Below are positions 18,152-29,364 of a stretch of 64,000 nucleotides of DNA, one piece after another. Under the pieces are notes generated by a model. That model had not been told where the DNA came from, searched no databases, and saw only the letters and a program-made list of their open reading frames with translations. The stretch comes from Sphingosinicella sp. (GTDB taxonomy: Bacteria > Pseudomonadota > Alphaproteobacteria > Sphingomonadales > Sphingomonadaceae): positions 1 through 64,000 of the forward strand of contig NZ_JACESP010000017.1 of NCBI RefSeq assembly GCF_013911755.1. The letters are read 5' to 3'. The position numbers and the translations under genes were made by a program. How positions within the stretch are numbered: position 1 is the stretch's first letter; each line of letters opens with the position of its first letter.

Positions 18152-19684
<1,533 letters not shown>

Positions 19685-19697
19685 AAGGGACTTGCCA

Positions 19698-20711
19698 ATG
19701 AACGTCCACAATCCCATCGCCCGCGAAATCCGCACCGACTGGACGCGCGACGAAGTCGCCGCGCTGTTCGACCTGCCGTTCGCGGACCTGATGTTCGAGG
19801 CGCAGACCGTGCACCGCGCGCACTTCGATCCGAACGCGGTGCAGCTCTCGACGCTGCTTTCGATCAAGACCGGCGGCTGCCCGGAGGATTGCGGTTATTG
19901 CAGCCAGTCAGCGAGCGCTGAAACGGGCCTAAAGGCCGAAAAGCTGATGGACGTGGACGCCGTGCTCGCCGAGGCGCGCGCCGCGAAGGACGCGGGCTCG
20001 GGCCGTTTTTGCATGGGCGCGGCGTGGCGCAGCCCCAAGGACCGCGACATGCCCGCGATCGTCGAGATGGTGAAGGGCGTCCGCGCGATGGGCCTCGAAA
20101 CCTGCATGACGCTCGGGATGCTCACGGCCGACCAGTCCCGCCAGCTCGCCGAGGCCGGCCTCGACTATTACAACCACAACATCGACACGAGCCCCGAAAA
20201 CTACGCCAACGTCATCACCACGCGCACCTTCGAGGATCGCATCGAAACGCTGGAAAACGTGCGCAGCGCGGGCATCAACGTGTGCTCGGGCGGCATCGTC
20301 GGCATGGGCGAAACACGCAGCGACCGCGTCGGCTTCCTGCACGCGCTCGCCACGCTTCCGCATCACCCCGAAAGCGTGCCGATCAACGCGCTCGTGCCGG
20401 TGAAGGGCACCGTGCTCGGCGACATGCTGGCCGACACGCCGCTCGCGAAGATCGACGAGATCGAGTTCGTCCGCACCGTTGCGGTCGCGCGCATCCTGAT
20501 GCCCGAAAGCATGGTGCGACTCTCCGCAGGCCGCGAGAGCATGTCGGATAGCGCGCAGGCGCTCTGCTTCATGGCGGGCGCGAACAGCATCTTCACCGGC
20601 GACCGGCTGCTGACCACGCCGAACGCGGGCGACAGCAAGGATGCGGCGCTGTTCGGACGCCTTGGCGTCCACCCGATGGAATTGGCCGCGCCCGCGCTTG
20701 CAGGCGCCTGA
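19698..20711 (+). CDS. bioB: Biotin synthase BioB
   Basis: A 337-residue radical-SAM enzyme that inserts sulfur into dethiobiotin. The [4Fe-4S] motif is CPEDCGYC (residues about 58-65); the [2Fe-2S] ligands appear in [17 protein letters not shown] and GINVCSGG, with the conserved Arg in MVRLSAGRE. An in-frame TTG lies at 19692, but AAGGGA is better spaced to ATG 19698. Lying between the two carboxylase subunit genes, it supplies the cofactor of the biotin-carrying alpha subunit. Confidence 0.95.
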
Positions 20712-20753
20712 AAATTAGCGCATTCGCAACGCGCCACCGGTAGACAGGCGCGC

Positions 20754-21389
20754 ATGAGCGGCGACGGCATCCTTTCGAAGATAGCGCGGCAACCAGCCGT
20801 TGTGCGGTTGTGGAGCGACCATGCGCTGCATCTGTTCGCCGCCGACACGCCCGGCATCGGCGCACCCGCCGATCTCGACGTTCGCGTCAACGACATGAAC
20901 CATGTCCGCCGCTTCGAGCAGACCGTGTCCTGGCAGACACGCGAGGACTTCATCGCCGCGGCCGAGCGGCGACTCGCGGAAGGCAAGACGCTGCTGTTCA
21001 CGGTTGCCGCTGCCGATGGCCCCCTGCTCGGCTATGGCCTTGCCCATCCGAACGCCGAAGAGACGACCTACACACATGTCGGTCAGCACGTGTTGTGGCC
21101 GGAACGGACGGCGACGCTCTACGGCGGTTACGTACACCCCATGGCGCGCGGGCATGGCCTTCACACCGCACTGCAGCGTGCGCGTATCCGCCATCTGATC
21201 GCGGACCTCGGTATGCGCTGGACGGTGAGCGGTGTCGTAAGCACGAACCTTGCCGCGCTGGCGAGCGCCCGCAAGGCCGGCTTGCGTCCGGTCGCGCTGC
21301 TGCACACCCGCCGGCGGCTGGGCAAGGCGCGCATGACAGCCGAACGCATCGACCCGGCGTTCGGCGCCCGCTTCGTGGACGCCGCGTGA
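20754..21389 (+). CDS. GNAT-family N-acetyltransferase of the ATP-grasp cassette
   Basis: A 211-residue acyltransferase-like protein. The acetyl-CoA-binding region is the stretch ATLYGGYVHPMARGHGLHTALQRARI (about residues 121-146), matching the GNAT R/Q-x-x-G-x-G/A motif. The N-terminal half (MNHVRRFEQTVSWQTREDF) is not informative. It opens the accessory cassette between bioB and pccA; its stop overlaps the GTG start of the ATP-grasp gene that follows (GTGA), so the two products are probably made together. It could acylate an amine on the intermediate built by the ligases, but the acceptor is unknown. Confidence 0.78.
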   Translation: MSGDGILSKIARQPAVVRLWSDHALHLFAADTPGIGAPADLDVRVNDMNHVRRFEQTVSWQTREDFIAAAERRLAEGKTLLFTVAAADGPLLGYGLAHPNAEETTYTHVGQHVLWPERTATLYGGYVHPMARGHGLHTALQRARIRHLIADLGMRWTVSGVVSTNLAALASARKAGLRPVALLHTRRRLGKARMTAERIDPAFGARFVDAA

Positions 21390-22561
21390 AGCCCGCGATC
21401 CTCGTCCCTGATGTCCAGACGCGCGCGCAGCTTGCAGCGCTGCGTTCGCTCGGCCGCGCGGGCTATGAAACCCATGCCGCGGCGGCAGACCCGCGCGCGA
21501 TGGGTCTGCGATCGACCTTCGCACGGCACACGGCGACGCATCCGCGTTACGGCGATCCGGCCTTCTGCGACTGGCTCACCGCCTATGTGAAGGCAAACGC
21601 CATCCGCATGATCGTGCCCTCGGGCGGCCTGCTTTCCGCCGTGCGCGAGCGGTTCTCCGAATTCAGCCCGCTCCTCCCCGTCTCCCCCGATCCCGCGATC
21701 GTCTATGCGGGCGGCGACAAGATCGCGGCCTACGACTGCTGGCGCGCAGCGGGCCTCCTCGACCATCATCCCAAAACGCTGGTGGCGCGCGCGGGCGATG
21801 TGCCCGACCTCTCGGGCTTTCCGCTGCCGATCTACGTGAAAGGCGGCCGGGGCGCAGATGGCGAAGTTGTCGGCGTCGGCTTCCACCAGTGCCTGAGCGT
21901 GCAGGCGGCTGAGGATGCCATCGGCCGGACGCTCGCCGCGGGCTACGAAAGCGTTCTCGTGCAGGGCGGCGTCACCGGGCGGCAGGTGGGCGTGAGCCTG
22001 CTGATGGGCCCCGATGGCCCGCTTGTCGGCGACGTCGTCGTCGATTGCCACGCCGAGCCGCACAGCAAGGGCACGATGTCGCTGCGCCGCACGCAGTGGC
22101 ATCAGGACGTTTACGACGATGCCGTGCGCCGCCTTTCCGCGCTCGGCTGGATCGGCTGCGCGATGGTGGAATACCGGCGCGATGACGACAGCGGCGATTT
22201 CCACGTCATCGAGGTGAACGCCCGCTTCTGGCAATATCTGCACCTCGATCTCCACGCGGGCGTCGATTTCCCCCGCCTCGCCGCCGAATGGTTCCTCGAC
22301 GGCCGAATTCCGCAGCCGATCCGCCCGAAGCAGGCCGTCATCTGCCGCGACACGTTTCCGGGCGAATTCGCCTGGCTCGCGAACGCGCTGCGGCGTCCCG
22401 GGAGCAAGGCCGCTCGGCTCGGCGCATTCGCATGGCGCTTCATCGATCCCCGCATTCATGCCGACCTAAACTTTCCCGAAGATCGGGCGTTGTATTTCCG
22501 GGAATTCGGCCGCTTCGCCGCGAACGAGATTCGTGCGCTGTTTAGGAAGATGGTTTTATGA
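21386..22561 (+). CDS. ATP-grasp ligase (carbamoyl-phosphate synthetase-like)
   Basis: A 391-residue stand-alone ATP-grasp protein, whose family makes amide or thioester bonds through an acyl phosphate. The N-terminal pre-ATP-grasp domain (PAILVPDVQTRAQLAALRSLGRAGY) precedes the ATP-binding core: FPLPIYVKGGRGADGE (Lys near residue 152), LVQGGVTGRQVGVSLLM, and the metal-binding HVIEVNARFWQYLHL (Glu and Asn). The start is GTG 21386, coupled to the GNAT stop; the open frame further upstream is a shadow of that gene. It overlaps the first sugar-transfer ATP-grasp gene by 4 bp. The substrate pair is unknown. Confidence 0.8.
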   Translation: MKPAILVPDVQTRAQLAALRSLGRAGYETHAAAADPRAMGLRSTFARHTATHPRYGDPAFCDWLTAYVKANAIRMIVPSGGLLSAVRERFSEFSPLLPVSPDPAIVYAGGDKIAAYDCWRAAGLLDHHPKTLVARAGDVPDLSGFPLPIYVKGGRGADGEVVGVGFHQCLSVQAAEDAIGRTLAAGYESVLVQGGVTGRQVGVSLLMGPDGPLVGDVVVDCHAEPHSKGTMSLRRTQWHQDVYDDAVRRLSALGWIGCAMVEYRRDDDSGDFHVIEVNARFWQYLHLDLHAGVDFPRLAAEWFLDGRIPQPIRPKQAVICRDTFPGEFAWLANALRRPGSKAARLGAFAWRFIDPRIHADLNFPEDRALYFREFGRFAANEIRALFRKMVL

Positions 22562-23643
22562 TTTTTGGGATGCCGGTGAAAGAGCTACTCGCATTGTCTC
22601 GAGCCGCCAAGGAACAGTCCGGAAAAAGTATCACATCCCAAATCATCGACATCATAAGACTCAGAGCAAGCAGAGGAAGAATAACAGCGGAATATTATTA
22701 CAATTATCGTCTTTTTGATCCAGAATTTACGTGGACACAAAAAACAACATATGTAGGACCTTGGGCAAAAAGTCGCATTTATAGAATTCAAGACACGGAA
22801 ACTGCACGGGTTTTCAGTGACAAGGCGCTATCATACCGTTTTTTTCATGAAAAGGGATGGCCCCATCCAAAAGTACTTGCTGCCACGAACACAGAAGCCC
22901 CCGCCGCAGGGGTGACTGCCCTGAATTCTGAACGCGAACTCGAGGCATGGCTGGGCAATAAGGAAAATTATCCGTTTTTCTGCAAACCCGCCGTCAGCTA
23001 TCTGGGATACGGCTCAAAACTCATCGTCCGTTCGGAGAACGGAAATTTGGTTCTCGGCGATGGCGAAACAATCAGCATAGCTGACTTCGTATCGCAGCAC
23101 GGCGCGCCGAACGGTCCGGTCATACTGTTTCAGGAATTGATCCGTCCGCACCCTGCATTGCAAAAGGTGATCGGGAATCGTGTGGCGACGGCTCGCATCG
23201 TAGTGCTTAACAAGTCTCGGGAAGCCAGGATACTTGCCGCAGGTCTCCGCATACCTTCGGGAAAGAGCATGACGGACAACTTCCAAAGTGGAAAGTCCGG
23301 GAATATGATCGCATTCGTGGATTTGGAAAGTGGTCGTCTGAGAAAAGTTCTTGGCGGATTGGGAGTCAATTGGCACGAAGTTTCCGTTCATCCCGACACC
23401 GCCGAACAGATTGTCGACTTCCCTATCCCGGACTGGCAAACGGCCGTTGATCTGGTGTTAACGGCCAGTCGCGCTATCCCCGGCTTGAAGATACACGGGT
23501 GGGATGTCGCTTTCAGCGACAGAGGACCGCTATTGGTCGAAACAAACCCCAGAGGCGATCTGAATATTGCACAGCTCGCTCCGGGCCGTGGGCTGCTTGC
23601 GGATGCGGATTTTCTGGCACTTTATCCGAACGAAAAATTCTGA
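22558..23643 (+). CDS. Sugar-transfer associated ATP-grasp protein, paralogue 1
   Basis: A 361-residue protein of the family often called sugar-transfer associated ATP-grasp (PF14397 type; older name hexapeptide transferase family). Features: GPWAKSRIYRI then SDKALSYRFF (Asp-Lys 88-89), ATP-binding Lys143 in FFCKP, FQELIRPHP (191-199), RIPSGKSMTDNFQSGKSGN, and metal ligands Asp316 and Glu328/Asn330 in GWDVAFSDRGPLLVETNPRG. The ATG overlaps the stop of the previous ligase (ATGA). The gene is markedly AT-rich: bases 22681-22740 contain only 19 G/C of 60, unlike anything nearby, which points to recent transfer. The reaction is not established for this family. Confidence 0.78.
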   Translation: MIFGMPVKELLALSRAAKEQSGKSITSQIIDIIRLRASRGRITAEYYYNYRLFDPEFTWTQKTTYVGPWAKSRIYRIQDTETARVFSDKALSYRFFHEKGWPHPKVLAATNTEAPAAGVTALNSERELEAWLGNKENYPFFCKPAVSYLGYGSKLIVRSENGNLVLGDGETISIADFVSQHGAPNGPVILFQELIRPHPALQKVIGNRVATARIVVLNKSREARILAAGLRIPSGKSMTDNFQSGKSGNMIAFVDLESGRLRKVLGGLGVNWHEVSVHPDTAEQIVDFPIPDWQTAVDLVLTASRAIPGLKIHGWDVAFSDRGPLLVETNPRGDLNIAQLAPGRGLLADADFLALYPNEKF

Positions 23644-23661
23644 TTTTCGAAGGGGGGACAC

Positions 23662-24798
23662 ATGTTTCTGGGGATCTCTCTAACAGATTTATTTCGGAAT
23701 ACGCACATAGCGAAAAAGCAAACCGGCAAAAGTCAACTCGCTCAAATAAAAGAAATAGTTCGCTGCAGGCGAGGCCCTGGAAAAGTGTCGGCGAAGGAAT
23801 ATTTCGATTATCGCCTGTTTGAATTGAACCCTTCGCAACATCACACATTTGCAGGCGTATGGGCGAAGGGCGTCGTTTATCAGGCGCAAGATCCTCAGTG
23901 GTGCGGCATTGGAAACGACAAGTTGCTTGCCTATGCCTTTCTCAAAACGTTCGGCCTGCCGATCCCGGTGACCAAAGCTGTCTACGAAAGCCGACGCTAT
24001 TATCCCGGCGTAGCACTCATCAGCACCGTCGAAGACATGGAGGATTGGCTCCGTCAGAAGGACAATTATCCATTTTTCTCGAAACCCTCGGCCGGCGCTT
24101 TCGGCATGGGAAGCTGTTGTGGTGTGTCATGGAACGAGAAGACCGATTCCATTGTGACGGTCACCGGGGAAGAAATTCCGGTGAAGACCTTCGCGCTGGA
24201 CAACTGGAACAAACATCTGGGGGGACTCATCTTTCAGGACGTAATTGAGCCCGACCCCGCACTGGTTCGCCTGTTCGGCAGACGCGTCGCCACCGCGCGG
24301 ATCATCACCATGGCTGCTGAGGGCGAAACACGGGTCCACCGCGCTGCATTCCGTATTCCTGTCGGGAAAAATTTCACCGATAACTTCAATCTCGGCACCG
24401 GCGGCAATGGCTTTGCTGAAATCGACATCGAGACCGGCACGCTCGGCGACATGTATGAAGGCCTCGGCCTGACGCTCAGGCGGACGCAGACGCACCTCGA
24501 TACCGGAGAGCGCATCACAGGCTTCCAACTGCCGCACTGGAATGAAGCCCTTGATATCGTGAAGCTTGGCCAGCAGGCCCTTTTCGGACTTCCCATACTG
24601 GGCTGGGACATCGCCTTCACGGTAAATGGACCCGTCGTGGTCGAGTTCAACACCCATCCCGGCTATGCGCTATTGCAAGCCACCGGGCGGGGTCTGATGG
24701 ACGACGTATTCCTGCAGTATTTCCCAATGGACCCCGTCGAGAACCGGAAACGATATCAACATATCATCATCGGCACGGGAAGCTGGAGGCGGCGCTAG
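23662..24798 (+). CDS. Sugar-transfer associated ATP-grasp protein, paralogue 2
   Basis: A 378-residue paralogue in the same direction, 18 bp after paralogue 1 with GGGGGGA upstream of the ATG. Shared blocks: VWAKGVVYQ, NDKLLAYAFL, ATP Lys141 in FFSKPSAGAFGMG, FQDVIEPDPALVRLFGRRVATARI, RIPVGKNFTDNF, GWDIAFTVNGPVVVEFN. It is also AT-rich at its start but nearer the genome average at its end. The C-terminus extends about 20 residues past the point where paralogues 1 and 4 stop, ending IIIGTGSWRRR. This tail may be read-through created when the gene was joined to the decayed sequence that follows. Confidence 0.78.
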   Translation: MFLGISLTDLFRNTHIAKKQTGKSQLAQIKEIVRCRRGPGKVSAKEYFDYRLFELNPSQHHTFAGVWAKGVVYQAQDPQWCGIGNDKLLAYAFLKTFGLPIPVTKAVYESRRYYPGVALISTVEDMEDWLRQKDNYPFFSKPSAGAFGMGSCCGVSWNEKTDSIVTVTGEEIPVKTFALDNWNKHLGGLIFQDVIEPDPALVRLFGRRVATARIITMAAEGETRVHRAAFRIPVGKNFTDNFNLGTGGNGFAEIDIETGTLGDMYEGLGLTLRRTQTHLDTGERITGFQLPHWNEALDIVKLGQQALFGLPILGWDIAFTVNGPVVVEFNTHPGYALLQATGRGLMDDVFLQYFPMDPVENRKRYQHIIIGTGSWRRR

Positions 24799-24811
24799 AT
24801 CGCGTCCCCGA

Positions 24812-24915
24812 CTCCTCAAGGCACGACGCCGCCGTCCATCGCGGCTTGAAGGTCCCCGTCATAGGTTTTGGGGGCCGCCCTTCACGTTCAAGAAAATCCC
24901 GATCGCGAACCGCGG
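24812..24915 (+). pseudogene. Decayed copy of the pccA upstream region and 5' end
   Basis: This ~104-bp stretch aligns by eye with 27272-27377, that is, the last codons of paralogue 4, the spacer and the first codons of pccA. I count roughly 13 mismatches and two 1-bp gaps. The pccA start ATG (27346) corresponds to ACG at 24884, so the copy cannot start; the frame then reads FKKIPIANRG against FKKILIANRG in pccA. The paralogue-4 stop TGA corresponds to CGA. Similarity ends abruptly at 24915. It is a scar of a duplication or recombination event in the array. Confidence 0.85.
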
Positions 24916-25103
24916 ACGCAGGCGCGCTACATGTCAAGATCGCGGCAAAGCGCGGCCTCGCCACGCCGCGCTTTCTGGAACGCTACGACAAACGGCGTCC
25001 TCTGTAACGGAATGGTAACGATAGTTATTTGTTTTTAAATTGAAAAATAACGCCTTACTGCAAAAAATTGCTTCCTCCGCAGCCCCGATATCGTACTGAG
25101 CCG

Positions 25104-25119
25104 CTGTGACGAATCACAG
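25104..25119. promoter_or_regulatory. Perfect palindrome before paralogue 3
   Basis: CTGTGA (25104-25109) and TCACAG (25114-25119) are exact inverted repeats around CGAA, 12 bp before the TTG start of paralogue 3. The half-sites match those of CRP/FNR-type operators, but the spacer is 4 bp instead of 6, so a CRP site is not assured. As RNA it would be a six-pair hairpin just upstream of the GGGGGA ribosome-binding site, so a translational role is equally possible. Confidence 0.4.
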
Positions 25120-25131
25120 TCGGGGGATAGG

Positions 25132-26208
25132 TTGTCACTTGCCGGAATCATTGCGCTTGCGCGCCGGGCGAAAGCGCAGACGGGGCGCGGCCTGTTCCAA
25201 CAGTTCGTCGACATGGCCGTGCTTCGCAAGGGCCCTGGCCGAATCCGGCCGGAGGCCTATTTCAAGTATCGTCTCTACACGCCGGGTTTGCCCATGGCAC
25301 GCAAGCTGCGCTTCGTGGACGAGTGGGCGCGGCCTCGCTTCTACAGCTTCGACGATCGCCGCTTTTATGCCATCGGCACGGACAAGCTGCTGTTCTACAC
25401 GATGATGCGCGCCTGGAAGTTGCCCGCACCGCGCGTGCTTGCCGTGATCCATCCGTGGCGTGTGTTCGCCGGGGCCGCATCGCTGCGCGATTCCGCCGCC
25501 ATCCGGGCGTTTTTCGCGCAAAGGGGGAATGACCCTTTCTTCATCAAGCGTGTGGACGACATTCGCGGACGCGGCGCGGCGCTTGTGCGCTGTGTAGACG
25601 CGGCCGCCGGTATTGTAAGCCTCGGCAGCGGAGAGGCCGTCCCGCTCGATGATTTCGTGGCGCGCCACAGCGGCACGCGCGATGGCGGATTCGTGGTTCA
25701 GGAACTGGCGCGGCCGCATCCCGATGTCGCTGCAGTGATCGGAGACCGGCTCGCCACCGTGCGCGTGATGACCTTCGCGCATGAAGGCACGTTCAAGGTG
25801 AAGCGCGCGTTGCTGCGCATTCCGGTCGGCACATCGATGACCGACAACTTCGCGGGTGGCATTACCGGCAACGCCTACGCGGCGATCGACCCCGATACCG
25901 GCAAGCTGACCGCCGCGACGCGCGGCACCGGACCGGACCAGCACGCGCTTGAATGTCATCCGGATACGGGTGTGCCCTTTGCCCGGCTGACGTTGCCGGA
26001 TTGGGAGAAGGCGATCGCCGATATCAGGCGGGCGACCTCCTATCTGCCGGGGCTGAAGTTCGCCGGCTGGGATCTCGCTTTCACCGATCAGGGACCGATG
26101 CTCATCGAAGTGAACGCCGCCCCCGGTGTCATCCTGCCGCAGCTCTACCTCGAACCGCTGATGGACGCCGATACGGACGCGCTCCACGCCCTCGGAAAGG
26201 CGGCCTGA
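25132..26208 (+). CDS. Sugar-transfer associated ATP-grasp protein, paralogue 3
   Basis: A 358-residue paralogue with normal GC content (bases 25201-25260 contain 40 G/C of 60). It starts at TTG 25132, supported by GGGGGA immediately upstream. Shared blocks: EWARPRFYSF, TDKLLFYTMM, FFIKRVDD (Lys139, but Arg follows where the others have Pro), VQELARPHPDVAAVIGDRLATVRV, RIPVGTSMTDNFAGGITGN, GWDLAFTDQGPMLIEVN (metal-binding Glu and Asn). The changed KP motif and other differences make it the most divergent of the four, suggesting a different substrate. Paralogue 4 follows after 7 bp. Confidence 0.78.
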   Translation: MSLAGIIALARRAKAQTGRGLFQQFVDMAVLRKGPGRIRPEAYFKYRLYTPGLPMARKLRFVDEWARPRFYSFDDRRFYAIGTDKLLFYTMMRAWKLPAPRVLAVIHPWRVFAGAASLRDSAAIRAFFAQRGNDPFFIKRVDDIRGRGAALVRCVDAAAGIVSLGSGEAVPLDDFVARHSGTRDGGFVVQELARPHPDVAAVIGDRLATVRVMTFAHEGTFKVKRALLRIPVGTSMTDNFAGGITGNAYAAIDPDTGKLTAATRGTGPDQHALECHPDTGVPFARLTLPDWEKAIADIRRATSYLPGLKFAGWDLAFTDQGPMLIEVNAAPGVILPQLYLEPLMDADTDALHALGKAA

Positions 26209-26215
26209 GCTGGGT

Positions 26216-27286
26216 ATGCGCAACATCGCCGCCACGCTGCGTTATGCGCGCGCTGGGGCTGCCGACGGCGGACTGCCTTTGGTCGCCCAGCTCGCCGAGA
26301 TGGTGCAGCTTCGCTTCGGGCCGTTCCGCGTGCGACCGCAGGAATATTACGAGCAGCGACTGTATCGTCCCGGAATGGCATTCGCTTCGAAGCGCGGCTT
26401 CGTGGGCTCCTGGGCGAAAGAAACCGTCTATCACATCGGCAATCATCGCTGGGATGCGGTCGCCGACGACAAGCTGCTCACATACCAGTTTCTGGACGGG
26501 CTTGGCCTTCTCTACCCGAAGATCGTCGCGATCGGCCACGCTTACCGCACCTATCCGGGCGTGCCCACCTTGGGCTCGCCCGAAGCGCTCGGCGCCTGGC
26601 TGCGCGAGGGCTGCCCCTATCCTCTCTTCGCGAAGCCTTCCGATCTTGCGCTCGGCATGGGCTGCGCACTGCTGGAGGGTTACGATCACGCGTCGGATAT
26701 GCTCCGAATGTCGGACGGAACCGTGATCCGCGTCGCGGACTATGTCGAAAAAATGTGGGCCCGCTCGGCAGGCCCGCTCATCTTTCAGGACCTGATCGTC
26801 CCGCACGCCGACCTCGTGCGTGTCATCGGCCAGCGCGCGGCGACGCTGCGCATCATGGTGCTGCTGCTCCCGGAAGGCCCGCGCGTGCATCGCATCGCCT
26901 TCCGCATCCCCGTCGGCCGCAACATGACCGACAACTATCGCAGCGGCAAAAGCGGCAACATGCTGGGGCAAGTCGATGCCGCAACGGGCGAGGTGCTGCG
27001 GGTGCATTCGGGCGTCGGCGCTGACCACCGAACGATCGAAAGCCACCCCGACACGGGCGCAGCATTCGCGGGTTGGCACCTGCCGTTCTGGGCGGAAACG
27101 CTGGACGCGGTGCGCTTCGCCGCGGCGGGTCTCGCGGGCATTCCCGTGCAGGGCTGGGACGTCGCCATCACACCGGGCGGGCCATCGTTTGTGGAGGTGA
27201 ACCACCGGGGCGACTTCGACCTTCTGCAGCAGGCGGAGGGGCGCGGCGTGGCGGATGAAGCCTTCCTTAGTCTCCTCAAGACTTGA
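26216..27286 (+). CDS. Sugar-transfer associated ATP-grasp protein, paralogue 4
   Basis: A 356-residue paralogue, 7 bp after paralogue 3 and GC-rich like it. Shared blocks: SWAKETVYHI, DDKLLTYQFL, ATP Lys140 in LFAKPSDLALGMG, FQDLIVPHADLVRVIGQRAATLRI, RIPVGRNMTDNYRSGKSGN, GWDVAITPGGPSFVEVNHRG. It is closer to paralogues 1 and 2 in the FAKP and GKSGN blocks than to its neighbour paralogue 3. Its last codons are the ones duplicated in the relic at 24812. pccA starts 59 bp downstream, so that gene's ribosome-binding site, and perhaps its promoter, lie at or just after the end of this gene. Confidence 0.78.
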   Translation: MRNIAATLRYARAGAADGGLPLVAQLAEMVQLRFGPFRVRPQEYYEQRLYRPGMAFASKRGFVGSWAKETVYHIGNHRWDAVADDKLLTYQFLDGLGLLYPKIVAIGHAYRTYPGVPTLGSPEALGAWLREGCPYPLFAKPSDLALGMGCALLEGYDHASDMLRMSDGTVIRVADYVEKMWARSAGPLIFQDLIVPHADLVRVIGQRAATLRIMVLLLPEGPRVHRIAFRIPVGRNMTDNYRSGKSGNMLGQVDAATGEVLRVHSGVGADHRTIESHPDTGAAFAGWHLPFWAETLDAVRFAAAGLAGIPVQGWDVAITPGGPSFVEVNHRGDFDLLQQAEGRGVADEAFLSLLKT

Positions 27287-27345
27287 CGCCGCCGCGCATC
27301 GCCGCTTGAAGGTCCGCGTCATTGGTTTCGGGGGCGCCGCCTTTC

Positions 27346-29364
27346 ATGTTCAAGAAAATCCTGATCGCGAACCGCGGCGAGATCGCCTGCCGGGTCATCA
27401 AGACGGCGCGGCGCATGGGCATCAAGACGGTCGCGGTCTATTCGGACGCAGATGCCGCCGCGCTGCACGTGGAGATGGCGGACGAGGCCGTGCGGCTCGG
27501 CCCGCCGCCCGCCGCTGAATCCTACCTTCTCGGCGACGCCATCATCGCGGCCTGCAAGGCAACCGGCGCCGAGGCTGTCCACCCCGGCTACGGCTTCCTG
27601 TCCGAGCGTGAATGGTTCGCCAAGCGCCTCGCCGAAGAGAATATCGCCTTCATCGGCCCGCCGCCCAATGCCATCGCCGCGATGGGCGACAAAATCGAAT
27701 CGAAGAAACTCGCCAAGGCCGCGGGCGTCAACGTCGTCCCCGGCTTCGTCGGGGAGATCGAGGATACCGAGCACGCCGTCCGCATCGCGAACGAAATCGG
27801 CTATCCGGTGATGATGAAGGCCTCCGCGGGCGGCGGCGGCAAGGGGATGCGCCTCGCCTACTCCGAAAAGGACGTGCGGGAGGGCTTCGAGGCGACCAAG
27901 CGCGAGGGGCTTTCGAGCTTCGGCGACGACCGCGTCTTCATCGAGAAGTTCATCGTCGAGCCGCGCCACATCGAGATCCAGGTGCTCGGCGACCAGCACG
28001 GCAACGTGCTCTACCTCGGCGAACGCGAATGCTCTATCCAGCGCCGCCACCAGAAGGTGATCGAAGAGGCGCCCTCGCCCTTCGTGACGCCCGAGATGCG
28101 CAAGGCGATGGGCGAGCAGGCCGTCGCGCTTTCGAAGGCCGTGGGCTACTATAGCGCCGGCACGGTGGAGCTGATCGTCAGCGGCGCCGACACGACCGGC
28201 ATGGGCTTCTACTTCCTGGAGATGAACACCCGCCTGCAGGTGGAGCATCCGGTGACGGAGTGCATCACCGGCCTCGACCTCGTCGAGCAGATGATCCGCG
28301 TCGCGGCAGGCGAGAAACTGGCCTTCACGCAGGACGACGTGAAGCTCTCGGGCTGGGCGCTTGAAAGCCGAGTCTACGCCGAAGACCCCTACCGCAACTT
28401 CCTCCCCTCGATTGGCCGCCTGACACGCTACGCGCCGCCCGAGGAGACGAGCGGCGAGACGACGGTGCGCGTGGATACCGGCGTCGTCGAGGGCAGCGAA
28501 ATCTCGATGTTCTACGATCCGATGATCGCCAAGCTGATCACCCACGCGCCGACGCGCGAGGAAGCGGCGGATCTTCAGGTCGCAGCACTCGACCGCTACC
28601 GGATCGACGGCATCGGCCACAACATCGACTTCCTCTCCGCCGTGATGCAGCACCAGCGCTTCCGCGACGGCCGCCTCACGACCGGCTTCATCGCCGAAGA
28701 ATACCCGGACGGCTTCGAGGGCGCGCCCTTCACCGACGAAAAGCGCGACGACCTGATCATCGCCGCCGCGGTCATCAACGCCATCACCGTGCAGCGCGCG
28801 CAGTTCATCGAGGGGCAGCTCAACGGCCACGGCGCGCAGTTCGGCCCGGACTGGGTGATCGAGATCGATCGCAAGCCGTTCAGCGTGCACGCCGAGGAAA
28901 CGAGCAGCGGCTGGATCGTGACCCACACGTTCGAGGGCGGTACGCACACGCACAACGTCGCGACGGAATGGGAGCCGGGCGAACCGGTGTTCCTCGCCGA
29001 CGTCGATGGCCGGGACGTTGCCGTGAAGCTGGCGCTGAAGCCCGTGGGCTACCGCATGACGGTGAAGGGCTCCGGCCACGACGTCCGCGCGCTCACGCCG
29101 CGCGCCAGCGCACTCGCGGGGTACATGATCGAGAAGATCCCGCCGGACCTTTCGAAGTTCCTGCTCTGCCCGATGCCCGGCCTTGTCGTCTCGGTCTCGG
29201 CGGCGGCGGGCGACACGGTGGAGCCGGGCCAGGCGCTCGCGGTCGTCGAGGCGATGAAGATGGAAAACATCCTCCGCGCGGAGAAGACGGCGGTCGTGAA
29301 GTCCGTGAACGCCAAGGCGGGCGACAGCCTCGCCGTGGACGCCATCATCATGGAATTCGAATAG
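27346..29364 (+). CDS. pccA: Propionyl/acetyl-CoA carboxylase alpha subunit (biotin carboxylase + BCCP)
   Basis: A 672-residue biotin-dependent carboxylase subunit. The N-terminal biotin carboxylase domain (FKKILIANRGEIACRVIKTARRMGIKTV) has the ATP-grasp glycine loop ASAGGGGKGMR near residue 160 and FLEMNTRLQVEHPVTE near 290. A connecting domain follows, and a C-terminal biotinyl domain has the attachment Lys in EAMKMEN. It carboxylates biotin and works with PccB. ATG 27346 gives the standard N-terminus; 8 extra codons upstream are open but belong to the spacer. Its separation from pccB-bioB by six accessory genes looks like insertion into a once compact locus. Confidence 0.95.
   Translation: MFKKILIANRGEIACRVIKTARRMGIKTVAVYSDADAAALHVEMADEAVRLGPPPAAESYLLGDAIIAACKATGAEAVHPGYGFLSEREWFAKRLAEENIAFIGPPPNAIAAMGDKIESKKLAKAAGVNVVPGFVGEIEDTEHAVRIANEIGYPVMMKASAGGGGKGMRLAYSEKDVREGFEATKREGLSSFGDDRVFIEKFIVEPRHIEIQVLGDQHGNVLYLGERECSIQRRHQKVIEEAPSPFVTPEMRKAMGEQAVALSKAVGYYSAGTVELIVSGADTTGMGFYFLEMNTRLQVEHPVTECITGLDLVEQMIRVAAGEKLAFTQDDVKLSGWALESRVYAEDPYRNFLPSIGRLTRYAPPEETSGETTVRVDTGVVEGSEISMFYDPMIAKLITHAPTREEAADLQVAALDRYRIDGIGHNIDFLSAVMQHQRFRDGRLTTGFIAEEYPDGFEGAPFTDEKRDDLIIAAAVINAITVQRAQFIEGQLNGHGAQFGPDWVIEIDRKPFSVHAEETSSGWIVTHTFEGGTHTHNVATEWEPGEPVFLADVDGRDVAVKLALKPVGYRMTVKGSGHDVRALTPRASALAGYMIEKIPPDLSKFLLCPMPGLVVSVSAAAGDTVEPGQALAVVEAMKMENILRAEKTAVVKSVNAKAGDSLAVDAIIMEFE

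What the first reader, a model, noticed from the sequence alone, without database searches (positions are those of the whole stretch)
20754..27286. Six-gene GNAT/ATP-grasp cassette with four tandem divergent 'sugar-transfer' ATP-grasp paralogues
Seen: one GNAT, one stand-alone ATP-grasp ligase and four same-strand ATP-grasp paralogues (356-378 residues), with overlaps or short gaps except before paralogue 3. All keep the ATP Lys and the metal-binding E-x-N, so all look active, yet they differ clearly from each other, and paralogue 3 has KR in place of KP. Known: ATP-grasp enzymes join a carboxylate to an amine or thiol; the sugar-transfer family has no settled reaction. Inference: the four ligases may each add a different unit in sequence to one acceptor (a peptide- or amide-decorated sugar or lipid), with the GNAT capping an amine. 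No glycosyltransferase, polymerase, exporter or precursor peptide is in the cassette, so the acceptor would be made elsewhere. I know of no described system with this composition.
Basis: partly seen in the sequence, partly recalled or inferred. Interest (0 to 1): 0.82.

Follow-up and report, generated by a model that had tools for sequence, protein, structure and literature searches.

The report
Shuffled amide-ligase cassette in Sphingosinicella
A run of ligase genes wedged between two housekeeping genes looks assembled by joining two variants of a changeable gene cassette, and it probably makes enzymes that hang small acid or amino-acid groups on a sugar of the cell envelope, though the product is not yet known.

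Summary
In detail: GNAT, one stand-alone ATP-grasp (AG0) and four intact, anciently diverged PF14397 ATP-grasps (34-38% identity) lie on one strand between bioB and pccA. A fixed four-step assembly line fits poorly. In three sister Sphingosinicella genomes the same slot holds GNAT-AG0-P3-P4, P3-P4 alone, or GNAT-AG0-P1. The gap before paralogue 3 is a recombination scar: a P4-tail remnant, broken pieces of pccA and the 3' end of another P1-type gene. P3-P4 are about 2-4 times more diverged at silent sites than the median neighbour, suggesting exchange between lineages. The six-gene set is best read as two alleles joined in one genome. Function is inferred. In six other genomes of the order AG0 lies beside a PgaB-like polysaccharide deacetylase, in four with a PF14397 gene too; Sphingosinicella keeps that deacetylase at another locus, and of the four good-quality genus genomes only the one without AG0 lacks an orthologue. 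Best reading: amide-forming decoration of an amino-sugar or uronic-acid envelope glycan, with interchangeable rather than serial ligases. The parts are known kinds; the modular, recombining ligase array is a new variant.

The parts
19692..20711 (+). bioB, left fixed flank of the slot
   Evidence: ORF; pccA follows within 1.5 kb in 14 of 26 bioB loci fetched from other genomes of family and order
20754..21389 (+). GNAT acetyltransferase (211 aa)
   Evidence: PF00583 27.3 bits over the 20.7 cut-off; orthologues in G149 (87%) and G085 (72%); a 28% homologue lies directly upstream of the AG0 homologue in G187
21386..22561 (+). AG0, full-length stand-alone ATP-grasp ligase (391 aa, GTG start)
22558..23643 (+). 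P1, PF14397 ATP-grasp, GC 0.51
   Evidence: 138.6 bits; grouped with G085_P1 and G149_C9, 100/99
23662..24798 (+). P2, PF14397 ATP-grasp, GC 0.55, no orthologue found in the genus
   Evidence: 119.0 bits; singleton in the tree
24805..24916 (.). scar piece 1: P4-tail remnant, intergenic stretch and pccA codons 1-12
   Evidence: 88% over 115 bp to the P1-pccA junction of G085; 87% over 106 bp to the window's own P4-pccA junction
24912..24945 (.). scar piece 2: pccA codons 35-45, out of place
   Evidence: blastn 82% over 34 bp to G149, E 9e-4; translated 73-82% over 11 codons
24933..24998 (.). scar piece 3: 3' end of another P1-type gene
   Evidence: 62-64% over 21-22 residues to the C-termini of G149_C9 and G085_P1 (E 1e-3 and 2e-4), and 75% DNA over 55 bp to G085
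25132..26208 (+). P3, PF14397 ATP-grasp (TTG start)
   Evidence: 129.4 bits; clade with G149 and G151 P3 100/100; dN/dS 0.13-0.16
26216..27286 (+). P4, PF14397 ATP-grasp
   Evidence: 97.5 bits; clade 100/100; AF2 pLDDT 95.2; dN/dS 0.115-0.16
27346..29364 (+). pccA, right fixed flank of the slot
   Evidence: 98% (G149), 95% (G151), 95% (G085)

Best explanation
The six genes are one genome's version of a variable amide-ligase array that sits in a fixed slot between bioB and pccA in Sphingosinicella. SHOWN: slot contents differ between the four genus genomes in which the slot was seen, by presence or absence of whole genes; the gap before P3 holds debris of a P4 tail, of pccA and of a P1-type gene; P3, P4, AG0 and GNAT are under purifying selection. 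INFERRED FROM THAT: this window's version is two alleles joined end to end (GNAT-AG0-P1-P2 and P3-P4), and P3-P4 has been exchanged between lineages. The paralogues are more likely alternative ligases with different donors or acceptors (P2 and P3 carry an N-x-x-P-G loop after E-x-N, P1 and P4 N-x-R-G-D) than four steps of one pathway, so exchanging them would change the decoration.
For: Allele comparison: G149 GNAT-AG0-P3-P4, G151 P3-P4, G085 GNAT-AG0-P1, window all six. Mosaic scar in the gap, and a P4-tail remnant GVADEAFLRLLKA-stop after P1 in G085. dS of P3/P4: 0.97/0.87 to G149 against 0.10-0.48 for the 12 other ORF pairs; 1.46/1.21 to G151 against 0.24-0.48 for the 11 others; AG0, with similar GC3, has dS 0.40 to G149. 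dN/dS 0.115-0.28 for P3, P4, AG0, GNAT. Tree: P1, P3 and P4 are separate groups at 100/99-100/100 inside one genus clade (94/99), with independent expansions in G158 and G198. Function: all 7 order genomes with AG0 at E<1e-50 (of 296) are among the 24 of 296 with the deacetylase at E<=1e-15; in 6 of 6 outside the genus the two genes are 30-857 bp apart, and in 4 of 6 a PF14397 gene adjoins. Genus: the three genomes with AG0 have the deacetylase at 94-100%; G151, with no AG0, has only a 30% partial match. GNAT directly precedes AG0 in G187. Flippase or glycosyltransferase genes are neighbours of, or 2-3 kb from, AG0 relatives in L118, L061, L119, L121. Precedents: VimE deacetylase then VimA amino-acid transfer on a sugar, as proposed in PMC7468200 (passages); a TupA-like ATP-grasp amidating glucuronate in capsule (PMC11800379, passages).
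Against: No substrate is known, and every functional step rests on gene neighbourhood and fold. No deacetylase, glycosyltransferase, flippase or polymerase lies in the cassette. G151 keeps P3-P4 without AG0 or the deacetylase, so the PF14397 pair can be used without that module; G152 has the deacetylase (94%) but no AG0 was found (83% complete genome). 17 of the 24 order genomes with the deacetylase lack AG0 at E<1e-50. Most PF14397 relatives fetched from outside the order are solitary genes in mixed surroundings. In G187 and G175 the PF14397 gene is far from AG0. Against G085, dS of GNAT and AG0 (0.75, 0.58) is not beyond other genes of the region (up to 0.78), so exchange is argued for P3-P4 only. 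P1 and P2 could not be tested for selection (dS saturated; no orthologue). Scar pieces 2 and 3 are short. An old two-gene duplication is not excluded: the best tree pairs P1 with P3 (67/56) and P2 with P4 (67/33), weakly.
Confidence: 0.43

Rival explanations
1. Serial assembly line: the four ligases add four different units in order to one acceptor and the GNAT caps the end.
For: Tandem, partly overlapping genes; four intact, divergent paralogues; two kinds of loop after E-x-N; general precedent in PMC4431377.
Against: Sister species carry two, two or one of the ligases in the same slot; the four-gene state looks like a fusion of two alleles; P3-P4 has a different silent divergence from GNAT-AG0 against G149.
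Confidence: 0.14
2. Small-molecule pathway: the cassette makes a soluble N-acetylated peptide or amide (osmolyte, antibiotic or cofactor tail), as GNAT plus ATP-grasp pairs do in other systems (recalled).
For: Nearest solved folds include ArgX, LysX, RimK, cyanophycin synthetase and D-Ala ligase for P4 and L-amino-acid ligase and PylC for AG0, which act on amino acids, peptides or carrier proteins; no glycan gene is in the cassette.
Against: AG0 relatives sit beside polysaccharide deacetylases and some near flippases; no NAGGN-type model matched at E<=1; no transporter or carrier gene in the cassette.
Confidence: 0.23
3. The cassette is tied to its flanks and acts on biotin, propionyl-CoA or methylmalonyl-CoA metabolism.
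For: It lies inside the pccB-bioB-pccA run; in G686 and G598, one distant genus, a PF14397 gene is about 5 kb from pccA-pccB.
Against: In 14 of 26 other bioB loci pccA follows bioB directly or after 0.6-1.4 kb without cassette genes in the part fetched; the AG0 relatives of the order that I looked at (six loci) are not next to bio or pcc genes.
Confidence: 0.07
4. A neutral, decaying accretion hot spot with little function.
For: Gene debris in the gap; P1 and P2 of foreign composition; a different content in each of the four genus genomes with the slot seen.
Against: dN/dS 0.115-0.28 for the four genes that could be tested; all six frames open; conserved residues kept.
Confidence: 0.1

Closest known systems
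PF14397 sugar-transfer associated ATP-grasp (Pfam)
   Same: P1-P4 score three to four and a half times its gathering cut-off; a plasmid homologue is annotated with this name.
   Different: No paper holding the accession or the exact family name was found, so no reaction could be cited; four in tandem with GNAT and AG0 was seen only in this genome.
RimK / LysX / ArgX carboxylate-amine ligases
   Different: P4's first 95 residues are all helical; RimK-family models match far below cut-off.
Wbp/Vim pathway of Porphyromonas gingivalis (PMC7468200, passages seen)
   Same: Logic: a CE4-type deacetylase frees a sugar amine that then receives an amino acid.
   Different: There the acyl step is ascribed to VimA, an acetyltransferase/FemAB-like protein, not to ATP-grasps; no sequence link to VimA was tested here.
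Cj1438 C-terminal TupA-like ATP-grasp of Campylobacter jejuni capsule (PMC11800379, passages seen)
   Same: An ATP-grasp making an amide on a capsule sugar carboxylate.
   Different: No TupA-like model matched P1-P4 at E<=1; there the ligase is fused to a glycosyltransferase.
Linked ATP-grasp plus GNAT operons (general proposal, PMC4431377, one passage seen; the older survey by Iyer et al. 2009 was not held)
   Same: Several peptide ligases in one operon, possibly with a GNAT cap.
   Different: No described case with allele exchange, a deacetylase partner and this composition turned up in the searches made.

Membership tests
PF14397 ATPgrasp_ST (P1-P4) | score over the Pfam gathering cut-off of 31.4 bits | tested here: met
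   97.5-138.6 bits, 4 of 4
PF14397 ATPgrasp_ST (P1-P4) | ATP-binding lysines and metal-binding D/E-x-N | tested here: met
   K86, K140, D315, E327 invariant in 49; N329 in all four
PF14397 ATPgrasp_ST (P1-P4) | sugar-transfer gene neighbourhood | tested here: inconclusive
   absent from the cassette itself; polysaccharide genes near homologues in several order loci, mixed surroundings elsewhere
RimK family alpha-L-glutamate ligases (P1-P4) | curated cut-offs of TIGR00768 and TIGR02291 | tested here: not met
   TIGR02291 23.9-42 bits against 314.2; TIGR00768 13.2 or less against 143.4
RimK family alpha-L-glutamate ligases (P1-P4) | shared ATP-grasp fold | tested here: met
ATPgrasp_Ter PF15632 / PRK12767 (AG0) | curated cut-offs | tested here: not met
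   22 against 29.1 bits; best 32.7 against 390
TupA-like ATP-grasp | match to a TupA-like Pfam model | tested here: not met
   no such match listed at E<=1 for the six proteins
NAGGN osmolyte cassette (TIGR03103 GNAT/ATP-grasp, recalled; TIGR03104) | trio GNAT and trio amidotransferase models | tested here: not met
   no match among the six proteins at E<=1
Deacetylase plus amide-ligase module of the order (defined here) | AG0 homologue beside a PgaB-like deacetylase | tested here: not met
   in this genome the deacetylase is an open frame but unlinked, G000:C23:82979-84061
PF14397 ATPgrasp_ST (P1-P4) | enzymatic product | not testable with these tools
   needs assay

The most novel reading that the evidence does not exclude
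A serotype-like switch built from ligases instead of glycosyltransferases: the bioB-pccA slot is a recombining array in which interchangeable PF14397 amide ligases are swapped between strains through the conserved flanks, so the envelope glycan (for example the uronic-acid glycosphingolipid that replaces LPS in this family) is re-decorated with different amides, perhaps to escape phages or grazers.
Probability: 0.26. Interest if true: 0.75.

Novelty: new variant of a known kind. Interest (0 to 1): 0.5.

Why it matters
PF14397 enzymes have a name, but the two searches for the accession and the family name found no paper, and no reaction could be cited. The natural variants in sister species (one, two, two and four ligases in the same slot) and the co-occurring deacetylase give a ready comparative series: mass differences between the species' envelope glycans should follow the ligase content. 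If so, it would assign a chemistry to the family and show surface variation generated by shuffling amide ligases.

Tried and rejected
Phage or plasmid carriage of the P genes: no relative in viral contigs (query A1; 54 pattern matches, none confirmed) and, for P1, 3 of 72,556 plasmid records, all under 34% identity. Promoter and terminator signals in 19600-27500: 3 promoter-like sites against 2.1 +/- 1.6 expected and 6 terminator-like against 7.5 +/- 3.0, so nothing is claimed for the gap. KR in P3 as loss of function: rejected. A recent tandem duplication P1-P2 to P3-P4: rejected, the proteins are only 34-38% identical; an ancient one is not excluded, since the best tree does pair P1 with P3 (67/56) and P2 with P4 (67/33) without good support, while the loop motifs pair P1 with P4 and P2 with P3. 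The GNAT homologue in G172 (C173) has no recognisable cassette gene on its 15-kb contig. The named-genome scan gave one locus only, S. microcystinivorans L027. Literature searches for PF14397, the family name and combinations with deacetylase, amidoligase or exopolysaccharide turned up no description of this cassette; listings and a few passages were seen, no whole paper.

Limits: the list of 32 genomes with a PF14397 match used was typed from the table at about E<=4e-15. The probabilities (9e-9 by genome; 2e-4 by genus, 4 of 4 AG0 genera among 11 of 79) ignore relatedness. P1-P3, the GNAT and the acceptor pockets were not modelled. The GNAT search covered 196 order genomes; the AG0, P and deacetylase searches 296. 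Gene calls in loci come from a crude ORF scorer of mine; the version missed the low-GC P genes and was replaced. G152's only bioB found (76%) lies in a different neighbourhood (G151 has a second, 72% bioB), so its slot was not seen, and it is one of the 26 'other' bioB loci. The G149 deacetylase match carries one TGA, which lies upstream of the conserved part, ahead of the likely start; the frame downstream is open.
Full report
WHAT IS THERE. The window belongs to a Sphingosinicella genome (3.63 Mb, 48 contigs): genus mate G149 is S. microcystinivorans DSM 19791, since its contig 1 and NZ_RBWX01000007.1 have the same length and the same locus. Between bioB and pccA lie GNAT, AG0 and P1-P4. P1-P4 pass PF14397 by a wide margin, are 34-38% identical to each other and keep the conserved lysines and the D/E-x-N motif. 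Two further PF14397 genes lie elsewhere in the genome, on C24 and C4.

THE SLOT. Of 26 bioB loci fetched from other genomes of the family and order, 14 have pccA downstream within the 1.5 kb held: six with gaps up to 354 bp and eight with 0.6-1.4 kb; the other 12 show no pccA there (gaps reckoned by hand). In Sphingosinicella the slot holds GNAT-AG0-P3-P4 (G149), P3-P4 (G151), GNAT-AG0-P1 (G085) or all six (window). In the two incomplete genus genomes the slot was not seen: G150 gave no match, and G152's only bioB lies in another neighbourhood.

THE SCAR. The 333-nt gap before P3 is a mosaic: 115 bp at 88% to the P1-pccA junction of G085 (87% over 106 bp to the window's own P4-pccA junction), then 11 out-of-place codons of pccA, then 21-22 codons like the C-terminus of a P1-type gene. 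In G085 the DNA between P1 and pccA reads GVADEAFLRLLKA-stop, the tail of a lost P4 (P4 here ends GVADEAFLSLLKT-stop). So the window seems to carry one allele (GNAT-AG0-P1-P2 with its pccA start) joined to another (debris of a P1-type gene, then P3-P4-pccA). An ancestral array GNAT-AG0-P1-P2/P3-P4 with later losses and exchange would explain all four genomes; an old duplication of a two-ligase block is an alternative that the tree neither supports well nor excludes (P1+P3 67/56, P2+P4 67/33). Both are inference.

EXCHANGE AND SELECTION. Against G149, P3 and P4 have dS 0.97 and 0.87 while 12 other ORF pairs of the region lie at 0.10-0.48 (the 0.10 is probably a shadow ORF); against G151, 1.46 and 1.21 versus 0.24-0.48 for 11 others. 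Codon bias is somewhat weaker in P3/P4 (GC3 0.78-0.80 against 0.89-0.92 for bioB, pccA, pccB), but AG0 with GC3 0.81 has dS 0.40 to G149. Against G085, GNAT and AG0 (0.75, 0.58) are not beyond the other genes (0.33-0.78). dN/dS is 0.115-0.16 for P3 and P4, 0.12-0.15 for AG0, 0.19-0.28 for GNAT. P1 and P2 have GC3 0.52 and 0.65; P1's relatives in G085 and G149 have 0.74 and 0.79, so P1, and perhaps P2, probably came from outside. The tree gives separate P1, P3 and P4 groups at 100% bootstrap and one genus clade (94/99); G158 and G198 expanded independently. Matches to the four-paralogue profile lie side by side also in G158 (five in 10 kb), G198, G165, G201 (two each) and, outside the order, G416 (three).

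FUNCTIONAL CONTEXT. AG0 homologues at E<1e-50 occur in 7 of 296 order genomes. In the six outside the genus each lies 30-857 bp from a PgaB-like deacetylase gene (PF01522 over its cut-off in the two scanned; all six by match to the Sphingosinicella protein), and in four a PF14397 gene is next to it (G172, G184, G217, G212). In G187 a GNAT homologue is immediately upstream of AG0 and a flippase gene downstream. The window's genome has the deacetylase at C23:82979-84061 with TIDDG and HTHRH motifs (motif meaning recalled). G085, G149 and G152 have it at 94-95%; G151, which lacks AG0, has only a weak partial match. 17 of the 24 deacetylase-bearing order genomes lack a strong AG0, so the deacetylase also works without it. 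A distinct deacetylase, FemAB and amidotransferase of an XrtA/PEP-CTERM exopolysaccharide locus lie on C12. Two distant PF14397 relatives adjoin a DegT-type aminotransferase. Three other order loci have a PP-loop protein beside the P gene.

MECHANISM. Most likely the enzymes form amides: AG0 and the P enzymes phosphorylate a carboxylate and pass it to an amine; the deacetylase exposes a sugar amine, and the GNAT acetylates. Candidate acceptors: an exopolysaccharide or the uronic-acid glycosphingolipids which replace LPS in Sphingomonadaceae (PMC7956469, passage). Because species use different subsets in one slot, the ligases are better read as interchangeable. I put about 0.85 on the allele-joining history, about 0.43 on envelope-glycan amide decoration, and less on any specific acceptor. 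Checking lowered the first two slightly: an old two-gene duplication has weak support in the best tree, and most deacetylase-bearing genomes lack AG0.

VERDICT. Real, not chance, and better explained than at first reading: the novelty lies in the apparently recombining array and its link to a deacetylase module, while the enzyme families and the idea of linked ATP-grasps with a GNAT are known.

Noticed in passing
G000:C2:70166-78150 (L176 10167-18151): Low-GC island (ORFs 0.40-0.54) with, by eye, integrase-like and resolvase-like ORFs; it carries a 227-aa ORF that looks GNAT-like by eye, a PP-loop (SGGVDS) protein related to neighbours of P genes elsewhere, and a 31% homologue of the cassette GNAT.
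   Followed up: partly
L058, L061, L065: A family of about 390-aa PP-loop proteins (SGGIDS or SGGIDG; DUF6395 hits below cut-off in two) sits next to PF14397 genes; possible further amide-forming partner.
   Followed up: partly
L166 7669-9552, L167 7720-9642, L133 400-2523: PF14397-type domains at the C-terminal end of 627-708 aa proteins; the N-terminal part of the first two looks membrane-spanning by eye.
   Followed up: no
L159 and L160 (G686, G598): A PF14397 gene about 5 kb from pccA-pccB in a distant alphaproteobacterial genus; chance or a second link to the same flank.
   Followed up: no
L154 (G541:C1:76878-77879): A PF14397 relative (42% to P4 over 258 residues) whose match is interrupted by one in-frame TAG.
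   Followed up: no
L183 (G000:C12:18000-37900): XrtA/PEP-CTERM exopolysaccharide locus with its own deacetylase, FemAB and amidotransferase.
   Followed up: no
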